From Isosphaeraceae bacterium EP7 (GTDB lineage Bacteria; Planctomycetota; Planctomycetia; Isosphaerales; Isosphaeraceae), in assembly GCA_038400315.1 (NCBI GenBank), contig CP151667.1, positions 5,591,174-5,655,173 on the forward strand: a stretch of DNA of 64,000 nt. Direction: 5' to 3'. Positions 188-33,828 of this stretch are shown here, in pieces; positions within the stretch are counted from its first letter, which is position 1; every line of letters starts with the position of its first letter. The position numbers and the translations under genes were made by a program. The notes below the pieces were generated by a model, which saw only the letters and a list, made by a program, of their open reading frames with translations, made no database searches and was not told where the DNA came from.

Positions 188-1003
188 TTAGTGGTCTGAA
201 TCGTGAACCATATAGGTTAGCGTCAGCCCCGTGTTCCCGAGCCGTTGCGCCTCCTCCCAAAGGGTGCCGCGCCGATTCTCGTACCAGACATCCGCTTCTA
301 TCTTGCCTTCAGAGAATTCGTCCGAGCCTTCCACAAGTAGGCGGGCCGTCTTCGACGTCTGCGGCACGCGTGAGCGATGGCGAACGAACCTGTAGCCGAG
401 GCTTTGCATGTCGTAGGACGCGACGTGAAATAGCACCACGCCCTCCCTCGCGAGGACCACGCTGCTAGCCTCGATGTCCAGTTCGCAGTAGCGGCGGACG
501 GTCGCAGTGATCGACGTGCCGAGCCGTTCGGAGAGAGTGATCAGATCCCTGAGCGTACACACCCTCTGCCTGAAGCGTGCTACCGCCGTCCTAAATAGAT
601 CCGCGGGCATCAACAACCCGGCGGAGAAGCGATCGGCCTCCCTCTCCAGCCTGTTGTCGCTGACGAATCCGGTGTGAGAGCCGTGCCAAAGGCCGCTCAG
701 GAGATACTCTTTGTGCTCTTCGAGATAGTAGTGGCCGAGCTCGTGGCCGATGGTGAAGTGAATACGGCCTTCGGTCCGTCCAGTTCGTTTATCCGCGTAG
801 AGGAGCAGGAACCTCCCCTTCTTGCGGTGGAATTCGAGCCTGGCGTCGAATCGCCCCCCGAATATCCCCGGAGCGAGGCGGATGCGCTCGTTCTTGGCGA
901 TCTCGAACGGATCGACCGGGAGCTTATAAAGGCCGTGAGCCTTTAGGATGGACGCGGCATAAGCCTCGATCGCCCGGTCGTCCATCGGCTTTGAGCCGGC
1001 CAT
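188..1003 (-). CDS. ImmA/IrrE-family metallo-endopeptidase (M78)
   Basis: A 271-residue zinc peptidase of the ImmA/IrrE (DUF955) type. The catalytic HELGH motif is at about residues 87-91, and the third-ligand region EREADRFSAGLLMP follows further on. Members of this family cleave repressors or other regulators (ImmA cuts ImmR in ICEBs1; IrrE cuts DdrO in Deinococcus). I chose the ATG at 1003 because a GAGGAG Shine-Dalgarno sits 8 nt upstream; an in-frame start at 1036 would overlap the preceding gene. It is the last gene of a three-gene operon after a sigma factor and a small acidic protein, with a 7-nt gap to the latter. A role in destroying a regulator, perhaps that small protein, is inference. 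Confidence 0.85.
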   Translation of the reverse strand: MAGSKPMDDRAIEAYAASILKAHGLYKLPVDPFEIAKNERIRLAPGIFGGRFDARLEFHRKKGRFLLLYADKRTGRTEGRIHFTIGHELGHYYLEEHKEYLLSGLWHGSHTGFVSDNRLEREADRFSAGLLMPADLFRTAVARFRQRVCTLRDLITLSERLGTSITATVRRYCELDIEASSVVLAREGVVLFHVASYDMQSLGYRFVRHRSRVPQTSKTARLLVEGSDEFSEGKIEADVWYENRRGTLWEEAQRLGNTGLTLTYMVHDSDH

Positions 1004-1010
1004 CGATGCG

Positions 1011-1373
1011 TCACTCCTCGAAGTCCACTTCCTCATCTTCCAGAAGTTCTCGCCGATGTTGTTCGATCTCGTCTAAGACGTCCTGGGGCAGATCGTCGTC
1101 CCCGCGGTGGAGCGCCATGATATCCGGCGAGATCGTTACGGGGCCTGGAGCTTCGATCCAGGAAGGAGGCGCGACAGGCCCCTCCTCCCCAGCCTCCCTC
1201 CTGGCGATGAGCCGGTCGACCAGGTCATCGCCGAGGCCATCGATCGCCTTCCGATCCTCGGCGTCCAAGACGGAGGGGTCGTCAACGTTCCCCACAGCGT
1301 CCTCGGAGCTGATGTGGAAGAACGACGCGATAAGTGCATCAAGTGCTCTCTCCTCCCGCTCTCTGTAGGTCAT
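1011..1373 (-). CDS. small acidic protein between sigma factor and peptidase
   Basis: A 120-residue, strongly acidic protein that I do not recognise. The C-terminus is rich in Asp and Glu and ends DEEVDFEE. Its ATG at 1373 overlaps the sigma-factor stop in an ATGA, indicating translational coupling; a longer in-frame start at 1514 would lie inside the sigma gene and is unlikely. The N-terminus (MTYREREERALDALI) is predicted helical. Because it sits between a sigma factor and an ImmA-like peptidase, it could be an anti-sigma factor or another peptidase substrate. No membrane segment or zinc motif is visible. Confidence 0.7.
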   Translation of the reverse strand: MTYREREERALDALIASFFHISSEDAVGNVDDPSVLDAEDRKAIDGLGDDLVDRLIARREAGEEGPVAPPSWIEAPGPVTISPDIMALHRGDDDLPQDVLDEIEQHRRELLEDEEVDFEE

Positions 1374-2143
1374 GACGCGTCTCCAAAAATCTCGCTGGCC
1401 TGATATCCACGCGTTTCCAGGTGTCGCCGCAGCGAAACCCGGCCGTTGCTCAACGCTCGCTTGACCGAGATGAAGGTGTGGTTCGGTCCGTCCTTCTTGC
1501 GGACCAGTTCGCACAAGTCCTGCTCGCTCGGTCGATCACCGGTCGCCTCAAGCGCTTCGAAGAAAACGCTCCAGACAAGACGCTCTTTGGAGGGCAATTT
1601 TGCGATTGCCATCCGAACCTCGTCGCGGATCTCGCCTCGCACCACCGCTTCGAGCCCCTTCCAGCACACGCCTGCCTCGGTGCCGCCGAGCGACGATCCG
1701 ACGTACTGAATAAACTCGTCATGTCGCCTGGCCCTTCGAAGCCAGTCGACTCCGCGACGGCGGGCGATCGTGAGCAGAAATGGGAGAATCGGTTCGTCAG
1801 GATTGAACGACGTAGATTGGGTAGAAGAGGCGGGCGCATCGAGGATCCGCATGAAGTGGATGAGGACGTCCGAGTAGCATTCGGCCACGTCCTGGGGCCG
1901 CATCCCGGGGAAGTGGGAGCGGAGGCAGGCGCACACCCGCATTCGGTATGCTTCATCCAGTTTGCGCAAACCCTCGTCGCGATCGGTCTTACCCCCGATT
2001 AGCAGGACGGCGATCTCGGTTTCATCGAAGTCGCTGGTCTCGTTCAAGATACGGACTCCCAAACCTGGCCACCTTGAGCAGATCGAGAAGTGGCGCTCCG
2101 TTTGGCTGGAGTATAACTCGCTCGAGATGAACTTTCGGACCAA
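1370..2143 (-). CDS. ECF-like RNA polymerase sigma factor
   Basis: A 257-residue sigma-70-family protein. Region 2 is recognisable around FPGMRPQDVAECYSDVLIHF and FLLTIARRRGVDWLRRARR (the -10-binding helix). Region 4 begins near AKLPSKERLVWSVFFEAL and runs to the C-terminus. It would bind core RNA polymerase and direct it to a small regulon. It is the first gene of an operon with the coupled acidic protein and the ImmA-like peptidase. The first 50 residues are not family-typical, so the true start may be further in. Sigma factors on mobile DNA often control the element's own genes; which promoters it reads cannot be told from here. Confidence 0.75.
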   Translation of the reverse strand: MVRKFISSELYSSQTERHFSICSRWPGLGVRILNETSDFDETEIAVLLIGGKTDRDEGLRKLDEAYRMRVCACLRSHFPGMRPQDVAECYSDVLIHFMRILDAPASSTQSTSFNPDEPILPFLLTIARRRGVDWLRRARRHDEFIQYVGSSLGGTEAGVCWKGLEAVVRGEIRDEVRMAIAKLPSKERLVWSVFFEALEATGDRPSEQDLCELVRKKDGPNHTFISVKRALSNGRVSLRRHLETRGYQASEIFGDAS

Positions 2144-2300: not shown

Positions 2301-3104
2301 ATGGCTGACAAGTCGAAAATCGAATGGACTGACGCAACCTGGAACCCGGTAAGAGGTTGCACCAAGATCAGCCCCGGATGCACCCACTGCTACGCCGAAA
2401 CGTTCGCCGAGCGGTTCCGGGGGGTCCCCGGCCACCCTTACGAGCAAGGGTTCGACCTCCGAACCGTACCCCACAAGCTCGTCGAGCCGCTTCGCTGGTC
2501 GCGCGCGAGGATGATCTTCGTCAACTCGATGAGCGACCTGTTCCACAAGGACGTTTCGGACGCCTATGTCGGGATGGTCGCGGATCTCATGCGCGCCGCG
2601 AACTGGCACACCTATCAGGTCCTGACGAAGCGCTCCGAACGGCTGGCCCAGATGCTACGGTCCGACCTGGCCGGGGCTGCCCAAGAGCCCCACATCTGGT
2701 GGGGGGTGAGCGTCGAGAACCGGAAGCACGGGTTGCCGCGCATCGATCACCTCCGGGATGCGCCTGCCGTCGTGAGGTTCCTCTCGATCGAGCCCCTCCT
2801 CGAAGACCTGGGCCAGATTGACCTGGCGGGGATTTCCTGGGTGATCGTCGGCGGGGAGAGCGGTCACGGTGCGCGGCCGATGCAGCCCGAATGGGTGCGT
2901 AACATCCGCGATCAGTGCAAGGACGCTGGCGTCTCCTTCTTCTTCAAGCAGTGGGGCGGGGTCCACAAGAGCCTCACCGGGCGCGAACTCGACGGCCAGA
3001 CCTACGACGCGATGCCCGAGCTGAGCCCGAACCCGATCGCGCCGGCCTCCGTCCGCGCGGGCCATCAGCGGAGACTCGAATCGCAACTCGCCGCCGCTCT
3101 CTGA
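2301..3104 (+). CDS. DUF5131 / phage Gp37-Gp68 family three-Cys-motif protein
   Basis: A 267-residue protein of the phage Gp37/Gp68 (DUF5131) family. The N-terminus carries the diagnostic cluster GCTKISPGCTHCYAE, with Cys20, Cys27 and Cys30 (C-x6-C-x2-C), which in this family is thought to hold an iron-sulfur cluster in a radical-SAM-like fold. The conserved NSMSDLFH, WWGVSVEN and VGGESG segments follow. The chemistry is unknown. It is followed after 18 nt by its usual partner TcmP. The Gp37/Gp68 name reflects occurrence on phages, consistent with the accessory character of this region. Confidence 0.9.
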   Translation: MADKSKIEWTDATWNPVRGCTKISPGCTHCYAETFAERFRGVPGHPYEQGFDLRTVPHKLVEPLRWSRARMIFVNSMSDLFHKDVSDAYVGMVADLMRAANWHTYQVLTKRSERLAQMLRSDLAGAAQEPHIWWGVSVENRKHGLPRIDHLRDAPAVVRFLSIEPLLEDLGQIDLAGISWVIVGGESGHGARPMQPEWVRNIRDQCKDAGVSFFFKQWGGVHKSLTGRELDGQTYDAMPELSPNPIAPASVRAGHQRRLESQLAAAL

Positions 3105-3122
3105 CGCAGGAAGGGGTGTCCG

Positions 3123-4037
3123 TTGATTCCTTCGTTGCAGAAGTTCGGGGACCGAAGCTGGACCCAGGACAAGCTCGAACGCGTCCGGAAATATCTGGTC
3201 GCCTACAGCAAGATCATGTCGAAACGGCGGTATCCATACGCCTACATCGACGGGTTCGCCGGCACGGGTTACCACGAGCTTGAGCGCGAGGAAAACGAGA
3301 CGGAAAGCCTCTTCCCAGAGTTGGAGGAGCCCGCGGTGGAGGAGTTCCTCGACGGCTCGGCGCGAATCGCCCTCCAGGTCGAGCCGCGATTTCACAAGTA
3401 TATCTTCATCGAAAAGAGCCGGAAGAAGTCGAAGGAACTCGGGAAGCTTCGCGAAGAGTTTCCGGAGCGAGCGGCGGACATCGTCGTCGAGAAGGCGGAG
3501 GCGAACGCCTACCTCCAGAAGCTCTGCCTCGAGCGCTCCTGGTCAGACCGCAGGGCGGTGCTATTCATCGACCCGTTCGGGATGCAGCTCACCTGGGAGA
3601 CGGTCGCCGCCATCGGGACGACGAAGGCCATCGACACCTGGATTCTCTTCCCGGTGAGCGCGGTGAACCGGCTCCTGAAAAAGGACGGTAACATCCCGCC
3701 CTCTTGGCGACGTCGGCTCGACACGATGTTTGGCGAGCCCGCGTGGTTCGACGTCTTCTTCCCGGAGGAGAAGCCGGGCCTGTTCGGGAGCGACATGGTG
3801 GTCCGCCGCAAGATCGCCGGCATGGACCTGATCGGGAAGTATTTCAATCAGCGACTCGCGACGGCTTTCGCCGGGGTCGCCCCGAATCCCTACACCCTGC
3901 GAAATAGCCAAGGCACGCCGCTGTTCCTCCTATGCTTCGCGGCGGCGAACCCGAACGCGGTAGCCCCGGCGATTAAGATTGCCCAGGACATTCTCAAGCG
4001 AGACCCGGCGACGGCGCTCCTTCCTTTGGGTGATTAG
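3123..4037 (+). CDS. tcmP: three-Cys-motif partner protein TcmP
   Basis: A 304-residue protein of the TcmP family, named because it is encoded next to three-Cys-motif (DUF5131) proteins, as it is here. The start is a TTG at 3123 with AGGAAGGGG a few bases upstream. The sequence has a Rossmann-like N-terminus (AYIDGFAGTGY near residue 40) and a central VLFIDPFGMQLTW, resembling the glycine loop and catalytic region of SAM-dependent methyltransferases. Methyltransferase activity is inference from these motifs. Together with the upstream gene it forms a two-gene unit of unknown purpose. Confidence 0.85.
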   Translation: MIPSLQKFGDRSWTQDKLERVRKYLVAYSKIMSKRRYPYAYIDGFAGTGYHELEREENETESLFPELEEPAVEEFLDGSARIALQVEPRFHKYIFIEKSRKKSKELGKLREEFPERAADIVVEKAEANAYLQKLCLERSWSDRRAVLFIDPFGMQLTWETVAAIGTTKAIDTWILFPVSAVNRLLKKDGNIPPSWRRRLDTMFGEPAWFDVFFPEEKPGLFGSDMVVRRKIAGMDLIGKYFNQRLATAFAGVAPNPYTLRNSQGTPLFLLCFAAANPNAVAPAIKIAQDILKRDPATALLPLGD

Positions 4038-4491: not shown

Positions 4492-4565
4492 TGGAGAGAG
4501 GGGCGGGATTCGAACCCGCGTGCCCTGGGTTGCAACCAGGTGGCTCGCCTCTTGCCTACCCTCTC
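4492..4565 (-). tRNA. tRNA-Cys(GCA)
   Basis: 74 nt with a complete cloverleaf: acceptor GAGAGGG/CCCTCTC, anticodon stem CCTGG/CCAGG around TTGCAAC (anticodon GCA), T-arm GCGGG-TTCGAAT-CCCGC. The terminal CCA is encoded, unlike in its three neighbours. It is the last gene of a minus-strand array Ser-Ser-Tyr-Cys. Confidence 0.95.
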
Positions 4566-4569
4566 GGAA

Positions 4570-4652
4570 TGGGTGTGGAGGGATTCGAACCCCCTCAGTC
4601 AGGGACACCGCGTTTACAGCGCGGTCCGGCTCTCCAACTCCGGCGCACACCC
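4570..4652 (-). tRNA. tRNA-Tyr(GUA)
   Basis: 83 nt. Acceptor GGGTGTG/CACACCC; anticodon stem CCGCG/CGCGG around CTGTAAA (anticodon GTA); class II variable region of about 13 nt; T-loop TTCGAAT. CCA is not encoded. Position 8 reads C instead of the near-universal U, so the gene is somewhat divergent. It is 4 nt from tRNA-Cys. Confidence 0.9.
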
Positions 4653-4658
4653 ATGGAA

Positions 4659-4741
4659 CGGAAGCGGCAGGATTCGAACCTGCGGTGGTTTCCCACACCT
4701 GGTTAGCAACCAGGCACGATAAGCCTCTCTGACACGCTTCC
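4659..4741 (-). tRNA. tRNA-Ser(GCU)
   Basis: 83 nt. Acceptor GGAAGCG/CGCTTCC; anticodon stem CCTGG/CCAGG around TTGCTAA (anticodon GCT); long variable arm TGTGGGAAACCACC; T-loop TTCGAAT. The D-stem pairs poorly (TCA against TCG), which is unusual. CCA is not encoded. Confidence 0.9.
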
Positions 4742-4747
4742 AGAGAG

Positions 4748-4830
4748 CGGAGGGAGAGGGATTCGAACCCCCAAGTCCTTTCGGACGGCAGTTTTCAAGA
4801 CTGCTGCCTTACCAGTTAGGCTATCCCTCC
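4748..4830 (-). tRNA. tRNA-Ser(UGA)
   Basis: 83 nt. Acceptor GGAGGGA/TCCCTCC; D-stem GCC/GGC; anticodon stem GCAGT/ACTGC around CTTGAAA (anticodon TGA); long variable arm CGTCCGAAAGGACTT; T-loop TTCGAAT. It is the first gene of the four-tRNA array in transcription order. CCA is not encoded. Confidence 0.95.
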
Positions 4831-6175: not shown

Positions 6176-6251
6176 GCCCCTGTGATGAAACGGCATCATA
6201 CCGAAACTAATGACTTCGGATTTGCGGGTTCAATTCCTGCCAGGGGCTCCA
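6176..6251 (+). tRNA. atypical tRNA with enlarged anticodon loop
   Basis: 76 nt, starting 3 nt after the previous tRNA. Acceptor GCCCCTG/CAGGGGC with encoded CCA; D-arm ATGA-AACGGCA-TCAT; T-arm GCGGG-TTCAATT-CCTGC. The anticodon stem CCGAA/TTCGG encloses a 9-nt loop ACTAATGAC. With an A-C mismatch at the top, the inner 7 nt would give anticodon AAT (Ile), an unusual A34. Identity is uncertain. It ends 13 nt before the stop of the convergent ATPase gene. Confidence 0.6.
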
Positions 6252-6264
6252 TTCCTCGTTTCAA

Positions 6265-7638
6265 TCAGCTCGCTCCCTCGATCCCGTCACTAAAGTCGGG
6301 TGCCGCAACGTGGTTGGGCACCGCCGCCGTTGCAGCCTTAACGGTTTCCCGGTCGATGCTTGTGAGCTTCTTATCGACTGCATACTGAATGACGTTCGCC
6401 GCGCGAGAAAGTGTTGTGCGGGGGTGAACCGAGGTCGGCACGCCCAGCAACTCGTCTAGGCCATCCGTCGTAAACGGCCTGATCGAACCCTTCTCTTTCG
6501 GGTTCATGCGATAGTAATCGAGATGGGCAACGATGATGTCTTTCGCCTGATCCTTACTCGGGAAGGGAAGCTCGACCGAGTTCTGCGAGCCCGGATCGAG
6601 GCGACCGACAGCGGCCAAGCCCGCCTCGCCCCATGCGACAGCCAGGTAGGACGAGGCCTGCTGGTGCGTCGTGAGAACGCACGAGAAGAACTTGTAGGCC
6701 GTATTCGCGTAGCCCGGTCGAACAGTGCAGAGTCCGAATTCCTTAGCGAATTCGATGCGCTGTTTCCGCGCCATCTGATCGACCAAGTTCTCGATGTCGT
6801 CGATGAACAAGTAGCCGCCCCCATAGCCCGCCGCGCGCAGGTAGTTCACCACGTCATCAAAGAGCAGCCTGCGTGAGTATTCGAGGATCTTCGTGTCACG
6901 AGGCATGTAGAGCGGTTCAAGCTGCCCGTCCTTACGCATCGATCGCAGGTAGTCTTCGAAGGTGCCCCGGGCAAGTTGGCGAGCGACCACGGCCTCCACG
7001 CCCCCGGCAGTGAGCGTCTTCGCGACCGTTTCGTCGAGCTTGATTGGATCGACACCATGCTTCGTCAGGATGTGATCTTTGAGCAGATTATCGGCGCTCG
7101 CTTCCCCTTCGGAATCATCGGAGAGCACCAAATCCGTCTTGTCCTCCGGCATCGCATTCAGGCGTAGTACGGCGCGCGAGGCTTCCAGCACGCCGTTCTT
7201 GCAGACATCGACCAGGCCGGAGAGAGCGAGTTGTTCCATGTAGCGACGGTCCACCTGGCTTTTGAAGCCGACGTAGATGACCGCGGCTGAGAACTTGCCA
7301 TTGAATTCCGTGTTGCCCCAGTCCTTGTTGATGCGCTGACGGAAGTACTGGAGTAGAGCCGTCTTGCCGACACCACGACCAGTCTCGCTGTCGCCCTTCG
7401 CCCACAGGTAGGCGAGCTGCGCGCGGTTGGGGAAATCGTCCGGCCGAATTAGCAGGCTCTCGAACTTGGCGATCGTTTCCCTCGCTGTGGACTCCGCGTA
7501 GATGGCCCCGTTGATCTTCGGATCGGGACTGTGCGGGTTCACGAAACCGTTGCTAGGGAACGGCATGTTCGTCAGCCCGAGGGGCGCGTAGATCGAACCA
7601 AGCGAGTCAGAGCTCTTCTTCGGCAGGTTGATAGGCAT
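6265..7638 (-). CDS. AAA+ (ORC/ExeA-like) ATPase of a three-gene operon
   Basis: 457 residues. Walker A is GRGVGKT at about 87-93, Walker B YLFIDDIENL at 276-285, a sensor-1-like FFSCVLTTH at 317-325, and a sensor-2-like HPRTTLSRAANVI at 405-417. The N-terminal PFPSNGF...PDP segment resembles the entry to ExeA/ORC-type AAA+ domains. A helical insert (about 170-250) separates Walker A and B. It is the last gene of an operon; its ATG overlaps the stop of the preceding gene (TAATG at 7640-7636). It probably acts as a nucleotide-driven switch or loader for the upstream nuclease-like protein, which is inference. I cannot match it to a named defence system. Confidence 0.75.
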   Translation of the reverse strand: MPINLPKKSSDSLGSIYAPLGLTNMPFPSNGFVNPHSPDPKINGAIYAESTARETIAKFESLLIRPDDFPNRAQLAYLWAKGDSETGRGVGKTALLQYFRQRINKDWGNTEFNGKFSAAVIYVGFKSQVDRRYMEQLALSGLVDVCKNGVLEASRAVLRLNAMPEDKTDLVLSDDSEGEASADNLLKDHILTKHGVDPIKLDETVAKTLTAGGVEAVVARQLARGTFEDYLRSMRKDGQLEPLYMPRDTKILEYSRRLLFDDVVNYLRAAGYGGGYLFIDDIENLVDQMARKQRIEFAKEFGLCTVRPGYANTAYKFFSCVLTTHQQASSYLAVAWGEAGLAAVGRLDPGSQNSVELPFPSKDQAKDIIVAHLDYYRMNPKEKGSIRPFTTDGLDELLGVPTSVHPRTTLSRAANVIQYAVDKKLTSIDRETVKAATAAVPNHVAAPDFSDGIEGAS

Positions 7639-8720
7639 TAGGCCCTCGTGATCAAGTTGAAAATCTGTGTGTTTTCACGCGCGCGAACCAGCGGCTTGCG
7701 TCGCCCTGTGATTCGGTCATATGTCAGCCCGAGTGTCACGGGAGGCTGCTTCATGTCGAGAAGAGCGTTAATGCCCTCGTCGAACGCCGCTTCCGGGATC
7801 AGCAGATTTTGACAGACAAGATCCCTCACGTCCGGCAAATCGTAATATCCCGCTTGCGATTTCAGCGCGTCGAATGCCGTCATCACACCCGCAAGAAATT
7901 CTCCCCTGGTGGTCCGGTCCGCCATGTCAGGCTCGCTAAGGTAGATCGTGTAATGGCCGTAATTCGGAATCGTCACCTCCATTGAGTTGTGCCACCGCCT
8001 GTTGTCTGCACCCTCGGTGCATGGCGAATAGCTTTTGGAAAACTCACCGCTCTCGTTCGTGACCCGCATAATGTTGAGCAAACGTAAACTGATGAGTCGA
8101 TCCCCCATCGCACGGAAGATCGGGAGCTTGAGCCCCGGAACGGCCTTGTCGAGAATCCGTTCTCGAAGAGCGTTTTCGAGGGCCTTCGGCGAATCTCTGT
8201 CTATTTGCTGGAGGAGTTGGGCCGCCTCCGTTTTGGCGGCGCCGTCGAAACTTGGAGTCAGAAGGCCCTCAATGTATTGAACGTCCCCCTGTCTCCCTGT
8301 CTCCACGATCGGGCTCAGGAGGCCGCCGAGAGCGATGTGCGAGTGGACGACGGCGAATAGGTTCGAGTAGGTCCGCAGATGAACGGCCGCCATCGTGCGT
8401 CGCAGCTCAACAAACTCCTTGTTTTCGAGGAGCGCCAAGACACGCGAGCCCTCGTCGGTGAGCGTGTACCCCTTATTACGGACGGGATCTGCGAAATTGA
8501 AGTGGGCAAGCTCCTGACAGATCTTATCTCCCAAGGATTCGTAGTTGCTCTTTGGCTCGGGCAGCATAAGGCGGATCGCCTTGTCGCGCGAAAACTTCAA
8601 CACGCTTCGCGAGATCGTTTGCGTTTGCTCCTCGCGCGTAGCCGTGGGCATCGCCGCGACAACTCGCAGCCCGATGTAGTGATAACCAACATCGGTCACG
8701 TTGAAGCTGGTGATTTTCAT
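7638..8720 (-). CDS. unrecognised protein with winged-helix-like segment
   Basis: 360 residues, no family recognised. A segment near residues 75-105 (GYTLTDEGSRVLALLENKEF) looks like the wing and recognition helix of a winged-helix domain, so DNA binding is possible. The rest is mixed alpha/beta without membrane segments or visible catalytic motifs. It is coupled on both sides: its ATG overlaps the nuclease-like gene's stop (ATGA at 8720-8717) and its stop overlaps the ATPase ATG. This strict coupling suggests that the three proteins work in one complex, with this one as the specificity or bridging subunit. Confidence 0.65.
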   Translation of the reverse strand: MKITSFNVTDVGYHYIGLRVVAAMPTATREEQTQTISRSVLKFSRDKAIRLMLPEPKSNYESLGDKICQELAHFNFADPVRNKGYTLTDEGSRVLALLENKEFVELRRTMAAVHLRTYSNLFAVVHSHIALGGLLSPIVETGRQGDVQYIEGLLTPSFDGAAKTEAAQLLQQIDRDSPKALENALRERILDKAVPGLKLPIFRAMGDRLISLRLLNIMRVTNESGEFSKSYSPCTEGADNRRWHNSMEVTIPNYGHYTIYLSEPDMADRTTRGEFLAGVMTAFDALKSQAGYYDLPDVRDLVCQNLLIPEAAFDEGINALLDMKQPPVTLGLTYDRITGRRKPLVRARENTQIFNLITRA

Positions 8721-9562
8721 GAAGTTCTCCTGACGGTGGCCGTTTTAACCACTTCTATCAGGCGAGAGCATTCCGCGTTCACGGCACGCAACTGGTCACC
8801 GATTTCCACGGTCTGACTCATCTTCGTGGCGCGGATCGTGATCGTTTCTTCGTTGAGAGAGTCGCACCGTCTGTTGAGGTCGGCTGGCGAAAGGAGAGCC
8901 GATAAGCGATTCAGCTCTACGCAAAAATCCTCGTATGCGTCCCACTCACCCTCGGGGAGCGCGAGCCCCTTGTCCCGCTCCGCCCCCATGCAACGCGCGT
9001 TGTGAACGAGCAGGGGTAGGGGTCTCAGGCCGGGAGCCACGGGATGGATGCCAAGACCGATGCACGCGGCGAGTCCGGTGTACTCGAACGCGAAAGCCGA
9101 CATGAACACCGGCACCAAGGTCTGCTTGAGCAGGCTCGGGTTGACGCACAGGTAGTCCAGGATCTTCGCGAAGAACACGATCACGTCGTTTTTCTCGGGC
9201 GGAAAATCCTGCCGGTTCTTTAGCTCGAAGATGCACCTAAGCGGTTCGTTCTGGGCTACAAGATCGATTTCGTGGAGCACGCCCGACGAGGTGGTGAGCA
9301 CGCTGCCGAGGTTCAGCTCGCGGTGCTGAGAGATGACCCAGCCCGGCTGAAGGCAGCTTTCTCGAAATCGCTCCTCGAAGCCCTGATCGGGAATCGGCTC
9401 GCGTTTCATGTGCTGCCAGCGTTCGGTAACGAACAGGTAGGTGTGACGAAGGAGAGCCACTCCACCTTGAGGTAATTCGTTTTCGATGCGAAGCGTCATG
9501 CGAAGCCGGGCCCCCAACCGCCACGAGATCGCCTTTGGCGTCCCGCGAACAGGGACCGACAC
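8717..9562 (-). CDS. PD-(D/E)XK nuclease-like protein
   Basis: 281 residues from a GTG at 9562; an ATG at 9499 is an alternative start (260 residues). It has the residue pattern of PD-(D/E)XK endonucleases: Glu64 in FEERF, Asp100 in GVLHEIDL, and Glu113/Lys115 in CIFELKNR, with spacing usual for the fold. The catalytic set appears intact. The C-terminal 60 residues are helical, possibly coiled coil. It is the first gene of the operon with the winged-helix-like protein and the AAA+ ATPase. Restriction-type or invader-directed DNA cleavage is inferred from fold and location. No methyltransferase is coupled to it. Confidence 0.65.
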   Translation of the reverse strand: MSVPVRGTPKAISWRLGARLRMTLRIENELPQGGVALLRHTYLFVTERWQHMKREPIPDQGFEERFRESCLQPGWVISQHRELNLGSVLTTSSGVLHEIDLVAQNEPLRCIFELKNRQDFPPEKNDVIVFFAKILDYLCVNPSLLKQTLVPVFMSAFAFEYTGLAACIGLGIHPVAPGLRPLPLLVHNARCMGAERDKGLALPEGEWDAYEDFCVELNRLSALLSPADLNRRCDSLNEETITIRATKMSQTVEIGDQLRAVNAECSRLIEVVKTATVRRTS

Positions 9563-9865: not shown

Positions 9866-9911
9866 CTGTCTACGGAACCGAAGGTTATAGGTTCGAATCC
9901 TATCGGGTGCA
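9866..9911 (+). other. tRNA-Arg(ACG)-like 3' half, putative attachment site
   Basis: From the anticodon loop (CTACGGA, about 9870-9876) to 9911 the sequence reads as the 3' half of a class I tRNA-Arg: ACCGA stem, AAGGT variable loop, T-arm ATAGG-TTCGAAT-CCTAT, then acceptor CGGGTGC and A. The matching 5' acceptor GCACCCG and a proper anticodon 5' strand are missing upstream. This is what an integrative element leaves at one end after inserting into a tRNA 3' half. It marks the likely right boundary of the accessory region. Confidence 0.5.
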
Positions 9912-31515: not shown

Positions 31516-31665
31516 GGACGCGCCAGGGAGTCAGACCAACCCGCGAGAACGCCTCACCGAATCTGAGCGGCCGAACGAGGATCCGACCATCCCCTCACCA
31601 CGAAGGGCCGAGTGCGGATGCCCCTCCCAGGCAACCTCGAATGCGCCACGAGTAGGAGCTTCGCC

Positions 31666-33828
31666 GTGTGCATTCGTCGCCCCATCCGGGCCATTGCCAT
31701 CGTCGCCTGCGTCATCGGATACGGACCTTTCGCCTCGCCGGGTTGGGCTGTCGAGCCCACGGCCGCTCTCCTCGAACATCTGCGATCGGGCGAGGTCGAG
31801 GTGCGTCGTGATGCGGCGGCCAAGATCCGGCTGGCGGAGAAGAACGTCCAGCGAGAGGCACTTCCCGTCCTGATCGAACTCTTGCAAAAAGAGAAGGATG
31901 GCCAGGTACGGCTGGCGGTGCTCGACACGGTTACCTACCTCGGCCCCGACGCCGAACCCGCCGTCCCGGCGCTCGTCCAGACCCTGCGATCCGACTACGG
32001 AGGCCTGGGAAAAGAGGAGCTGCACCAGGATTATCGGTCGGCCCTGGCCCTTGCGACCGTGGGCAAACCGGCCGTCGAAGGGCTCCGCGGCCTCCTCTCG
32101 GAGAAGAAGGAGAGTGTGAGGGCCGAGGCGGTGATGGCCCTGGGCCGAATCGGGCCCAATGCCGAGGCGGCCGTGAAGGACCTGATCCCGCTGCTCGGTC
32201 ATACGTCTGAACGGATTCGACGGGAGGCCTCGCTGGCGCTGGGTCGGATCGGCAAGCCCGCGATAGGACCTCTGGTCGACGCCGCATCGGGCGAGAATCT
32301 GCAGGTCCGAGCCCTGGCGGTCGATGCACTCGGGCACCTTCCCGCGACCGACGACATGACCCGAGGAGCGGTCCTCGCGGCGGCCCATGATGGCTCGCCC
32401 GAAGTCAGGGCGGCCTCGACGAGGTCGCTGGCCAGACTCGGGCTGCCCGAGGACGTCGTGCTACCGATCATCAAGGAGAATCTCCGGGACGAGGACGAAC
32501 TTGTCAGGTTGGCAACGGTCGACCTCCTGGTTGGTCGACCGGCATTGCTCCAGCCTTTGGTGGCGGACCTGGAACAGCTGCTGACGTCCAAAAACCCGGG
32601 GATCTCTCGCCACGCCGCTCTCCTCTTGCGTCGAGTCGGGCCGGATTCCGCCCGTCTGCTTCTCAATGCCCTGGCCCGCAAGGAGAGCCGGATCGATCAG
32701 ATTGCCGAGGCGTTGGGGCAGGTCGGCCGTCCGGCGGTGAGCCAACTCGTGACATCACTCCAGGACCCCGAGCCCCGCGTTCGCCGGGGCGCGGCCCTGG
32801 CACTCGGACAGGTCCGGCCGCTGGCGCCTGGCGTCGTGCAACTCTTGACGGCCGGACTCAATTCGGACGATCCAGAAATGAAAGCCTCGTTCCTTGCCGC
32901 CATCGGCTCACTCGGCCCGGGCGCCGCGGAGGCCGTCCCTGCGGTGCGAGGCTTGCTGAAGGACGAGTCCGAGGAGATCCGACTCCAGGCAATCTCCATA
33001 CTGTCCCGGTCCGCACCGCGCGACGAGCGTCAGGTCGGCGACCTTGCGGGCTTGCTTGGAGACCCGAGTCCCCGGGTCCAGCGCCTATCGATCGAGACGA
33101 TCCGCGCGCTAGGACCGCTGGGCCGCAAAGCGCTGGGACAGGTTATCGAGTTGCTGAAGAGCCCCAGCACGGATGTTCGCCTGGCCTCGGCCGAATTCAT
33201 CGGCAGCCACGGGCAGTCGGCCGAATCGGCCGTCCCGTCGCTTCTCACGCTACTCGACGACCCGACTCCCGCTGTCCGGTCGATGTCCGCCAAGACGCTG
33301 GGCTCGCTCGGAAAGGCGTCGCAACCGGCCCTTCATCGGCTCGCTTCGTTGCTTGATGACGGCCAGGCGGAAGTCCGTTCGGCCGCAGCCCTGACCCTCG
33401 GGAGCCTGGAACTCGAGCCCGAAGCGATCCGTCCCCACCTGGCCAAGGCCCTCAGAGATACCGATCCTGACGTTCGGAAGTCGGCGATGGGGGCGATCCA
33501 GCGCCTGGGACCTCCGGGTGCAATGTTCATCCCGGACATCATCCTGATGGCCGAGAAGAAGGAGAACGTCGGCGCGGTTCAGCGCATGCTGCGCCGGTTC
33601 GAACGCAAAGGCCCGGACGCCCGCTCGGTGCCGGAACTCGTCAAGCAGTTGGATCACCAGCAGGAACCGGTGCGGCTCCTGGCGGCGAAATTCCTCGGCC
33701 TCGCCGGCACTCATGCCCAGGATGCGATCCCCATCCTGGAAAAGATGCGGGACGACCCGAGCACCGAGATTCGAAAGCAGGCCGAGGCTTCGATCGAGCA
33801 GATCAAGAAGGGCTCGGCCCCGAGCTGA
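31666..33828 (+). CDS. secreted HEAT-repeat protein
   Basis: 720 residues from a GTG at 31666, chosen because AGGAG lies 7 nt upstream; an in-frame GTG at 31612 would give 738. A signal peptide (RPIRAIAIVACVIGYGPF...) is followed by HEAT/PBS-lyase-like repeats to the end, roughly 16 or more units of 35-40 residues built on patterns such as VPALVQTLRSD, AVMALGRIGPNAEAAV and EVRSAAALTLG. Such solenoids are protein-binding scaffolds. Planctomycetes have many. No enzymatic domain is attached. Confidence 0.82.
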   Translation: MCIRRPIRAIAIVACVIGYGPFASPGWAVEPTAALLEHLRSGEVEVRRDAAAKIRLAEKNVQREALPVLIELLQKEKDGQVRLAVLDTVTYLGPDAEPAVPALVQTLRSDYGGLGKEELHQDYRSALALATVGKPAVEGLRGLLSEKKESVRAEAVMALGRIGPNAEAAVKDLIPLLGHTSERIRREASLALGRIGKPAIGPLVDAASGENLQVRALAVDALGHLPATDDMTRGAVLAAAHDGSPEVRAASTRSLARLGLPEDVVLPIIKENLRDEDELVRLATVDLLVGRPALLQPLVADLEQLLTSKNPGISRHAALLLRRVGPDSARLLLNALARKESRIDQIAEALGQVGRPAVSQLVTSLQDPEPRVRRGAALALGQVRPLAPGVVQLLTAGLNSDDPEMKASFLAAIGSLGPGAAEAVPAVRGLLKDESEEIRLQAISILSRSAPRDERQVGDLAGLLGDPSPRVQRLSIETIRALGPLGRKALGQVIELLKSPSTDVRLASAEFIGSHGQSAESAVPSLLTLLDDPTPAVRSMSAKTLGSLGKASQPALHRLASLLDDGQAEVRSAAALTLGSLELEPEAIRPHLAKALRDTDPDVRKSAMGAIQRLGPPGAMFIPDIILMAEKKENVGAVQRMLRRFERKGPDARSVPELVKQLDHQQEPVRLLAAKFLGLAGTHAQDAIPILEKMRDDPSTEIRKQAEASIEQIKKGSAPS

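What the first reader, a model, noticed from the sequence alone, without database searches (positions are those of the whole stretch)
6265..9562. Coupled nuclease / winged-helix-like / AAA+ ATPase operon, candidate new defence system
Three genes overlap stop-to-start (ATGA, TAATG), so they are translated together and probably form one complex. The first has an intact PD-(D/E)XK residue set (Glu64, Asp100, Glu113-x-Lys115), the third has full Walker A/B and sensor motifs of an ORC/ExeA-type AAA+ protein, and the middle one has no family I recognise but a winged-helix-like segment. They lie at the end of an accessory region, next to an attachment-site-like tRNA fragment. I cannot assign them to BREX, Wadjet, Gabija or another named system.
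Basis: partly seen in the sequence, partly recalled or inferred. Interest (0 to 1): 0.75.

Follow-up and report, generated by a model that had tools for sequence, protein, structure and literature searches.

The report
Unnamed nuclease, DNA-reader and ATPase trio
A compact three-gene unit (a DNA-cutting enzyme, a DNA-binding protein and an ATP-driven protein) has spread between distantly related bacteria and into a virus, in about half the cases looked at beside anti-virus-type genes; it looks like an undescribed version of a recently predicted kind of restriction machine, but I found no test of it.

Summary
Three minus-strand genes overlap stop-to-start: PD-(D/E)XK nuclease NUC (8717-9499; ATG 9499, not GTG 9562), wHTH protein MID (7638-8720) and AAA+ ATPase (6265-7638). 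No model of Pfam, NCBIfam, PADLOC or PHROGs claims them. The triplet recurs in the same order in 8 of 10 scanned loci from several phyla (7 intact), and in another order in a head-tail virus contig and one divergent genome. NUC folds as PD-(D/E)XK with invariant D79, E92, K94. MID has an N-terminal wHTH and a modest match to FokI's DNA-reading region. AAA is linked, through an intermediate, to BrxC/BrxD. The triplet ends an apparent 88-kb tRNA-Arg island; 5 of 9 other bacterial loci probed have defence-type neighbours. Best reading: an ATP-dependent restriction-like complex without its own modification enzyme. An Orc/Cdc6 + triple-wHTH + nuclease design was already predicted in print (PMC10853773); here I see no ASCH domain on the nuclease. 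New variant of a known, predicted kind. Defence is inferred, not shown.

The parts
8717..9499 (-). NUC: PD-(D/E)XK nuclease, 260 aa, first gene of the operon
   Evidence: AF2 model pLDDT 86, pTM 0.87; AF1548 Z 10.8 (rmsd 2.6, 110 aligned) and 2vld Z 9.6; D79/E92/K94 invariant in 9 of 9 aligned sequences
   Evidence: homologue matches begin at residue 21-34 of the longer reading; some relatives do have longer open frames
9218..9265 (-). NUC catalytic motif D79 ... E92-x-K94
   Evidence: coordinates computed from ATG 9499
7638..8720 (-). MID: wHTH DNA-binding-type protein, 360 aa, probably several wHTH units
   Evidence: AF2 pLDDT 85, pTM 0.81; wHTH at residues about 9-102 (TubR/MarR/PadR rows, Z up to 9.4) and FokI 1fok Z 9.0, rmsd 5.1, 202 aligned over model residues 1-257
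6265..7638 (-). AAA: AAA+ ATPase, 457 aa
   Evidence: Walker A GRGxGK[TS], Walker B LFIDDIE and C-terminal HPR conserved in the close set, one exception at G91 in L011; weak AAA_16 and ORC-CDC6-like matches below cut-off; link to PF10923 through L043
7357..7380 (-). Walker A of AAA (residues 87-94)
6790..6810 (-). Walker B of AAA (residues 277-283)
9868..9909 (+). attachment-site-like copy of the tRNA-Arg(ACG) 3' half, end of the apparent 88-kb island
   Evidence: 95% over 42 nt to genome C1:5513177-5513218, E 3.7e-12
6176..6251 (+). tRNA-Ile(AAT) directly downstream of AAA
2301..3104 (+). PDC-M41B-like gene (DUF5131), neighbouring candidate defence gene
   Evidence: PADLOC 7e-103, Pfam DUF5131 5.7e-101
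3123..4037 (+). PDC-M41A-like gene, neighbouring candidate defence gene
   Evidence: PADLOC 1.4e-105; no Pfam match
188..1036 (-). capP-like M78 peptidase
   Evidence: PADLOC capP 5.6e-49, Pfam Peptidase_M78 1.5e-9

Best explanation
The three genes encode one ATP-dependent, restriction-like nuclease complex against incoming DNA. MID, a wHTH protein in the style of the FokI/SspB/DndG DNA readers, binds DNA and supplies target recognition. AAA, probably an Orc/Cdc6-type ATPase distantly related to BrxC/BrxD, assembles on the DNA and licenses the complex with ATP. NUC, a PD-(D/E)XK nuclease, then cuts. No modification enzyme travels with the three genes, so self must be spared by something else: a foreign DNA feature or modification that MID reads, an unlinked host mark, or ATP-gated activation. 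Shown by computation: the coupled operon, joint inheritance of the three genes, conserved catalytic motifs, the nuclease fold, the N-terminal wHTH, patchy distribution across phyla and an island-end position. Inferred: complex formation, DNA binding, cleavage, the target, and defence.
For: Triplet in the same order in 8 of 10 scanned loci (7 intact, 1 cut by a contig end) and in another order in a virus contig and a divergent genome. One NUC match, at the triplet, in 9 of 11 carrier records. Coupled junctions and correlated distances. PD-(D/E)XK fold with invariant D, E, K. MID wHTH and FokI match. AAA motifs and link to BrxC/BrxD. Patchy: 1 of 392 genomes of its phylum sample, its own. Lower G+C than 10280-64000, 58.3 vs 66.3%, and the end of a tRNA-Arg island. 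Defence-type genes beside 5 of 9 other bacterial loci probed and in the window. Carriage between head and tail genes of a virus contig. A like design predicted as counter-invader in PMC10853773 (section 22 read).
Against: No functional data. None of the flanking proteins probed beside L003, L007, L008 and L011 is a defence gene that I accept. The control was small: of 6 non-island window proteins, one matched PADLOC at 1.1e-23. Foldseek gave no E <= 0.001 for either model; Z near 9 over 202 residues at rmsd 5.1 is only a little above the 7-8 that the tool calls typical for models without a clear match; designed coiled coils also reach Z 8.8 against the NUC C-terminal part. In the divergent genome L023 the MID comparison is weak (hhalign probability 31%, E 5e-4). 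L011 breaks the Walker A glycine 91 and L024 lacks the Walker B glutamate. No structure was predicted for AAA. With so few loci, enrichment in defence islands was not measured.
Confidence: 0.6

Rival explanations
1. An abortive (self-directed) nuclease: AAA and MID sense an infection cue and release NUC on host DNA, killing or stalling the infected cell, instead of restricting incoming DNA by sequence or modification.
For: No modification gene is shared by the loci; neighbours of mixed defence types; NUC also aligns to the CRISPR-ancillary nucleases Can2, Card1 and Cdn1, best Z 7.5-8.2.
Against: A conserved wHTH protein argues for DNA reading; no sensor domain was recognised in AAA or MID by the family scans (only a CARF model at 0.039 for MID); the Can2/Card1 match is of the common nuclease core.
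Confidence: 0.18
2. A transposition or replication module of mobile elements: Orc/Cdc6-type ATPase with a DNA-binding protein and a TnsA-like end-cutting nuclease.
For: Orc/Cdc6-type ATPases also serve transposons (stated in PMC10853773); the triplet is mobile and sits at the end of an integrative island and in a virus contig.
Against: No fourth gene is shared by more than two loci (local BLASTP, E <= 1e-5); the neighbours differ each time and, in the virus, are head and tail genes; the island has its own integrase ORF; no transposase in Pfam scans of five window neighbours. Not every flanking gene was scanned.
Confidence: 0.1
3. A housekeeping DNA-repair or chromosome-maintenance complex.
For: NUC is closest in fold to an archaeal protein AF1548 and a Pyrococcus repair endonuclease.
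Against: Very patchy: only the own genome among 59 relatives and 392 phylum genomes; spread across phyla; 1 of 10 loci decayed (L004).
Confidence: 0.05

Closest known systems
Orc/Cdc6 + REase(-ASCH) + DndG-like triple-wHTH mobile neighbourhoods predicted in PMC10853773 (NAR 2024)
   Same: an AAA+ ATPase of probable Orc/Cdc6 type, a PD-(D/E)XK nuclease and a wHTH protein with a FokI-like match in one mobile operon
   Different: no ASCH-like part is visible in the NUC model; AAA ends about 50 residues after its HPR motif, too short for the C-terminal wHTH described there (inference); whether these exact families are in that paper's supplement could not be checked
BREX BrxC/BrxD ATPases (PF10923)
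   Same: distant link of AAA through the L043 homologue; BrxD is likewise described as a standalone ATPase (PMC12839542 passages)
   Different: AAA itself has no PF10923 match; no PglZ, methyltransferase or BrxC among the window genes scanned
SspB-SspC of the Ssp phosphorothioation system
   Same: an Orc/Cdc6 ATPase paired with a triple-wHTH protein (as described in PMC10853773)
   Different: no modification gene is shared by the triplet loci, and a nuclease is part of the operon
FokI / BspD6I restriction enzymes
   Same: wHTH recognition region plus PD-(D/E)XK cleavage domain; MID and NUC each align to them
   Different: split into two proteins, with an added ATPase and no linked methyltransferase in the window
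McrBC
   Same: AAA+ NTPase plus PD-(D/E)XK subunit; NUC aligns to an McrBC chain at Z 7.3
   Different: here a third, separate wHTH protein is always with them; relation of AAA to McrB was not tested

Membership tests
Orc/Cdc6 + triple-wHTH + REase modules (PMC10853773) | AAA+ ATPase with intact Walker motifs | tested here: met
   Walker A and B conserved in the close set; exceptions L011 (Walker A) and L024 (Walker B)
Orc/Cdc6 + triple-wHTH + REase modules (PMC10853773) | ATPase is of the Orc/Cdc6 clade | tested here: inconclusive
   transitive only: A7 vs L043 AAA hhalign E 1.5e-8, probability 95.5, over Walker B to lid; L043 AAA vs PF10923 39.2 bits, cut-off 22.2; own ORC-CDC6-like match E 0.2; not modelled
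Orc/Cdc6 + triple-wHTH + REase modules (PMC10853773) | DndG/SspB/FokI-like triple wHTH protein | tested here: inconclusive
   first wHTH clear; FokI Z 9.0 over 202 residues, rmsd 5.1; further wHTH units read by me from DSSP elements only
Orc/Cdc6 + triple-wHTH + REase modules (PMC10853773) | PD-(D/E)XK nuclease with catalytic residues in the operon | tested here: met
   activity not tested
Orc/Cdc6 + triple-wHTH + REase modules (PMC10853773) | ASCH domain fused to the nuclease | tested here: not met
   NUC residues 160-260 are helices with two short strands in the model (block pLDDT 77-97), and no Pfam match
BREX | PglZ, methyltransferase and BrxC in the locus | tested here: not met
   none among 8 window proteins scanned with Pfam and PADLOC; no fourth gene shared by more than two loci. 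L005 does have a PglX-like neighbour
BREX | AAA belongs to the BrxC/BrxD family (PF10923) | tested here: inconclusive
   window AAA has no PF10923 match; only a transitive link
Ssp/Dnd phosphorothioation | modification genes linked to the operon | tested here: not met
   none among 8 window proteins scanned; no shared fourth gene; the rest of the genome was not searched for them
Tn7-like transposition | transposase beside the ATPase and nuclease | tested here: inconclusive
   no transposase in Pfam scans of 8 window proteins and no shared fourth gene, but not all flanking genes of the other loci were scanned
PADLOC-described defence systems | match to a component model | tested here: not met
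   window NUC (231-aa form) and AAA none at E <= 1, MID only a CARF model at 0.039; L023 and L024 proteins none at 0.5

The most novel reading that the evidence does not exclude
The triplet is the type member of an unnamed, deeply divergent family of three-part, modification-independent restriction machines in which recognition (multi-wHTH), ATP licensing (Orc/Cdc6-type ring) and cutting (PD-(D/E)XK) are separate subunits. A virus also carries it, presumably against rivals. A related form (L043) adds a DNA methyltransferase, which suggests a route between methylation-coupled and methylation-free versions.
Probability: 0.35. Interest if true: 0.68.

Novelty: new variant of a known kind. Interest (0 to 1): 0.52.

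Why it matters
Orc/Cdc6 ATPases linked to wHTH proteins and nucleases have been proposed as anti-invader machines, but in the section I read (PMC10853773, section 22) the mobile versions rest on gene neighbourhoods. This triplet is small (about 3.2 kb), self-contained and conserved across phyla, with clear catalytic residues, so it is a convenient minimal test of whether such a trio protects cells and how it spares host DNA without a modification enzyme of its own.

Tried and rejected
Named-system assignment: Pfam, PADLOC, NCBIfam and PHROGs gave nothing over a cut-off for the three proteins. In those four calls NUC was given from an internal ATG (9412; 231 aa), without the first 29 residues of the form described here; the catalytic core was included. 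Sequence searches of solved structures gave no relevant match at E <= 10 for A1, A2, A3, A7, A6 or the L043 ATPase. Plasmid and phage collections: no match with the window or virus ATPase; the L023 ATPase found only an orphan homologue in Azospirillum without a detected MID or NUC nearby, none in phages; the L024 ATPase none in plasmids; the Azospirillum one only itself. Further virus scans found the same contig or nothing. The viral Foldseek library gave no E <= 0.001 for MID.

A shared fourth gene was sought and not found beyond one 30% pair between L005 and L009. The LeoA-like match beside L003 was rejected because Pfam reads that protein as an EngA-type GTPase, and the C3a156 match beside L008 because it is a luciferase-like oxidoreductase. 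The L006 helicase (ZorD/DpdE-like) was counted as defence-type but may be an ordinary SNF2 helicase. A nested element between tRNA-Ile and the attachment copy was considered; one search showed no supporting repeat. Homology of the L043 wHTH-like protein and nuclease to MID and NUC was tested and not supported, nor that of the L024 gene upstream of its ATPase to MID (hhalign E 0.28). The empty site of the island in a relative was not looked for.

Rows left out: L012 (AAA cut by the contig end) from all alignments; L004 from the MID and NUC alignments (half a MID, no NUC); L011 from the NUC alignments (cut; its AAA frame also ends at 413 aa); L007 and L011 from A7; the junction count covers the window and the seven intact loci only. 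A PADLOC scan of every flanking gene and a matched random control were not run; the 20 flanking proteins scanned outside the window were picked by size and position.
Full report
What is there. On the minus strand three genes run NUC (9499 to 8717), MID (8720 to 7638) and AAA (7638 to 6265), joined by ATGA and TAATG overlaps. None of the three proteins reaches a cut-off in Pfam, NCBIfam, PADLOC or PHROGs; AAA has only weak AAA_16 (E 0.0038) and ORC-CDC6-like (E 0.2) matches and MID a CARF model at 0.039 (NUC was given there as a 231-aa form from an internal ATG).

Relatives. A scan of the genome collection with AAA gave 10 loci, by record title from Planctomycetes, Verrucomicrobia, Acidobacteria, Entotheonella, Pseudomonadota, Chloroflexi and an unnamed bacterium. 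AAA is 57-72% identical over nearly the whole length, or over the part held where the contig or frame is cut. Seven loci hold the intact triplet in the same order. L011 holds it with NUC cut by the contig end and an AAA frame of 413 aa. L004 keeps AAA and the C-terminal half of MID, with no NUC match in its genome. L012 starts inside AAA. Among ORFs of 90 aa or more no further gene is shared by the neighbourhoods (BLASTP E <= 1e-5) apart from one 30% pair between L005 and L009. NUC gives one match, at the triplet, in 9 of 11 carrier genomes or records; the misses are those of L004 and L012, and L011's is partial. MID-AAA junctions overlap in 7 of 7 intact loci and NUC-MID in 5 of 7. Pairwise distances of the three proteins correlate (r 0.93-0.98 with the virus, n = 9; 0.63-0.87 without, n = 8; permutation p <= 0.008).

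Distant versions. A virus contig (L014) carries MID, AAA and NUC in that order. Against the window proteins, in a local search of that locus alone, AAA is 32% identical (E 6e-70), MID 20% (E 9e-9) and NUC 29% over 166 residues (E 4e-15). Of nine neighbouring virus proteins scanned with PHROGs four matched: two head-type proteins before the triplet, a minor tail and a neck-type protein after it. The host is unknown. A genome in the phylum sample around L008 (record title Chloroflexi), G556 (L023), carries MID, AAA and NUC in the same order as the virus: local profile search 8e-5, 3e-22 and 5e-6; hhalign E 5e-4 (probability 31), 5e-18 (99) and 3.5e-6 (88) for MID, AAA and NUC. G619 (L024) has the ATPase at a contig end and an upstream gene whose relation to MID is not significant. 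A still more distant ATPase in G1514 (L043) matches PF10923 BrxC_BrxD above cut-off; it stands in a run of methyltransferase, Csa1/Cas4-like nuclease, wHTH-like protein (my reading; no Pfam match) and ATPase. Those nuclease and wHTH-like genes are not demonstrable homologues of NUC and MID.

How rare it is. Searches hit 1 of 59 genomes among relatives (E <= 1e-3), 1 of 392 of the phylum (E <= 1e-8), 3 of 301, 1 of 217, 1 of 194 and 1 of 249 in four other phylum samples (E <= 1e-6), and 2 of 132 and 2 of 281 with the broader profile A7 (E <= 1e-5). In these counts the centre genome is included, and all hits are genomes already known to carry a homologue except G556, G619 (both first found) and G1514; sample the same phylum. 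Plasmid and phage records hold no match to the window ATPase at E <= 1e-5.

Structure. NUC models well (pLDDT 86, pTM 0.87) and its core aligns to PD-(D/E)XK proteins: AF1548 Z 10.8, rmsd 2.6, 110 residues; a Pyrococcus repair endonuclease Z 9.6; Can2, Card1, McrBC and FokI chains at about 7-8; its helical C-terminal part also draws designed coiled coils at Z 8.8. D79, E92 and K94 are invariant in 9 of 9 aligned sequences and the equivalent D, E and K are present in L023; E42 is Q in the virus. MID (pLDDT 85, pTM 0.81) has an N-terminal wHTH (about residues 9-102, Z up to 9.4) and aligns over 202 residues to FokI (Z 9.0, rmsd 5.1), with MarR, PadR and MukBEF chains below. The tool warns that Z below 8 is common without relationship. 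Foldseek alone gave no E <= 0.001 for either model. From the DSSP elements I read two further wHTH-like units (about 178-231 and 244-334); that reading is mine and not a search result. AAA was not modelled. Its C-terminus after HPR (405-407) is about 50 residues, enough for the AAA+ lid and too short for an added wHTH (inference).

Setting. The 42-nt copy of a tRNA-Arg 3' half at 9868-9909 matches an intact tRNA-Arg(ACG) at genome C1:5513147-5513220 with two differences that preserve the T-stem pairing. An ORF that matches the C-terminal 45 residues of the phage-integrase family (37.7 bits, cut-off 27.1) begins 26 bases after that tRNA. The triplet is therefore the last operon of an apparent island of about 88 kb; that the whole span is one element is an inference, and no empty site was looked for. 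The triplet is 58.3% G+C against 66.3% for 10280-64000. The same island end carries a PDC-M41A/B-like pair and a capP-like peptidase. Twenty flanking proteins from nine other bacterial triplet loci were scanned with PADLOC. Defence-type matches occur beside L005 (type IIG/PglX-like 1.9e-123 and an SNF2-type helicase 4.1e-22), L006 (ZorD/DpdE-like helicase 9.7e-79, possibly an ordinary SNF2 helicase), L009 (OLD/GajA-like ATPase 9.1e-40, ending 9 bases before the open frame of NUC), L010 (type IIG 5.1e-77, and a PrimPol-type protein 1.8e-87) and L023 (HmaC 6.5e-91). Beside L003, L007, L008 and L011 none that I accept was found. As a control, 1 of 6 non-island window proteins matched, at 1.1e-23.

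Comparison with print. Section 22 of PMC10853773 (read whole; [quoted passage not shown] PMC12839542 (abstract and outline, passages, section 36) describes BrxC and BrxD as Orc/Cdc6 ATPases, BrxD standing alone. In the listings (searches listed nothing) I saw no title or abstract start that describes this triplet; subscription papers, preprints and supplements were not searched.

Verdict. Restriction-like defence is the best-supported function, at about 0.6; complex formation, cleavage, target and self-protection are inferred. It is an undescribed variant of a predicted kind, worth a bench test.

Noticed in passing
genome C1:5513147-5514599 and window 9868-9909: An intact tRNA-Arg(ACG) followed by an integrase-type ORF, and an 88-kb-distant copy of its 3' half with two compensatory T-stem differences, as if the element brought its attachment site from another host's tRNA.
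   Followed up: partly
window 4492-4830 and 6176-6251: Four tRNA genes (Cys, Tyr, Ser, Ser) in tandem plus a tRNA-Ile with an AAT anticodon (unusual, from recall) inside the island.
   Followed up: no
window 2301-4037: A PDC-M41B/PDC-M41A-like pair (DUF5131 and partner), a PADLOC candidate defence system, 2.2 kb from the triplet.
   Followed up: partly
window 188-2143: capP-like M78 peptidase, a small gene and a weakly sigma-70-like gene in a row.
   Followed up: partly
L043:6742-11160 (G1514): Run of DNA methyltransferase, Csa1/Cas4-like nuclease, wHTH-like protein and BrxC/BrxD-family ATPase: a possible restriction-modification counterpart of the triplet.
   Followed up: partly
L009:4337-6067: OLD/GajA/AriA-like ATPase gene ending 9 bases before the open frame of NUC, perhaps co-transcribed in this one locus.
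   Followed up: no
L038:8800-10110 (Azospirillum brasilense plasmid p1): Orphan distant AAA homologue near IS66-like ORFs (my reading by eye), without a detected MID or NUC.
   Followed up: partly
window 31612-33828: 738-aa protein with HEAT-repeat-type PADLOC matches (1.1e-23) outside the island.
   Followed up: no
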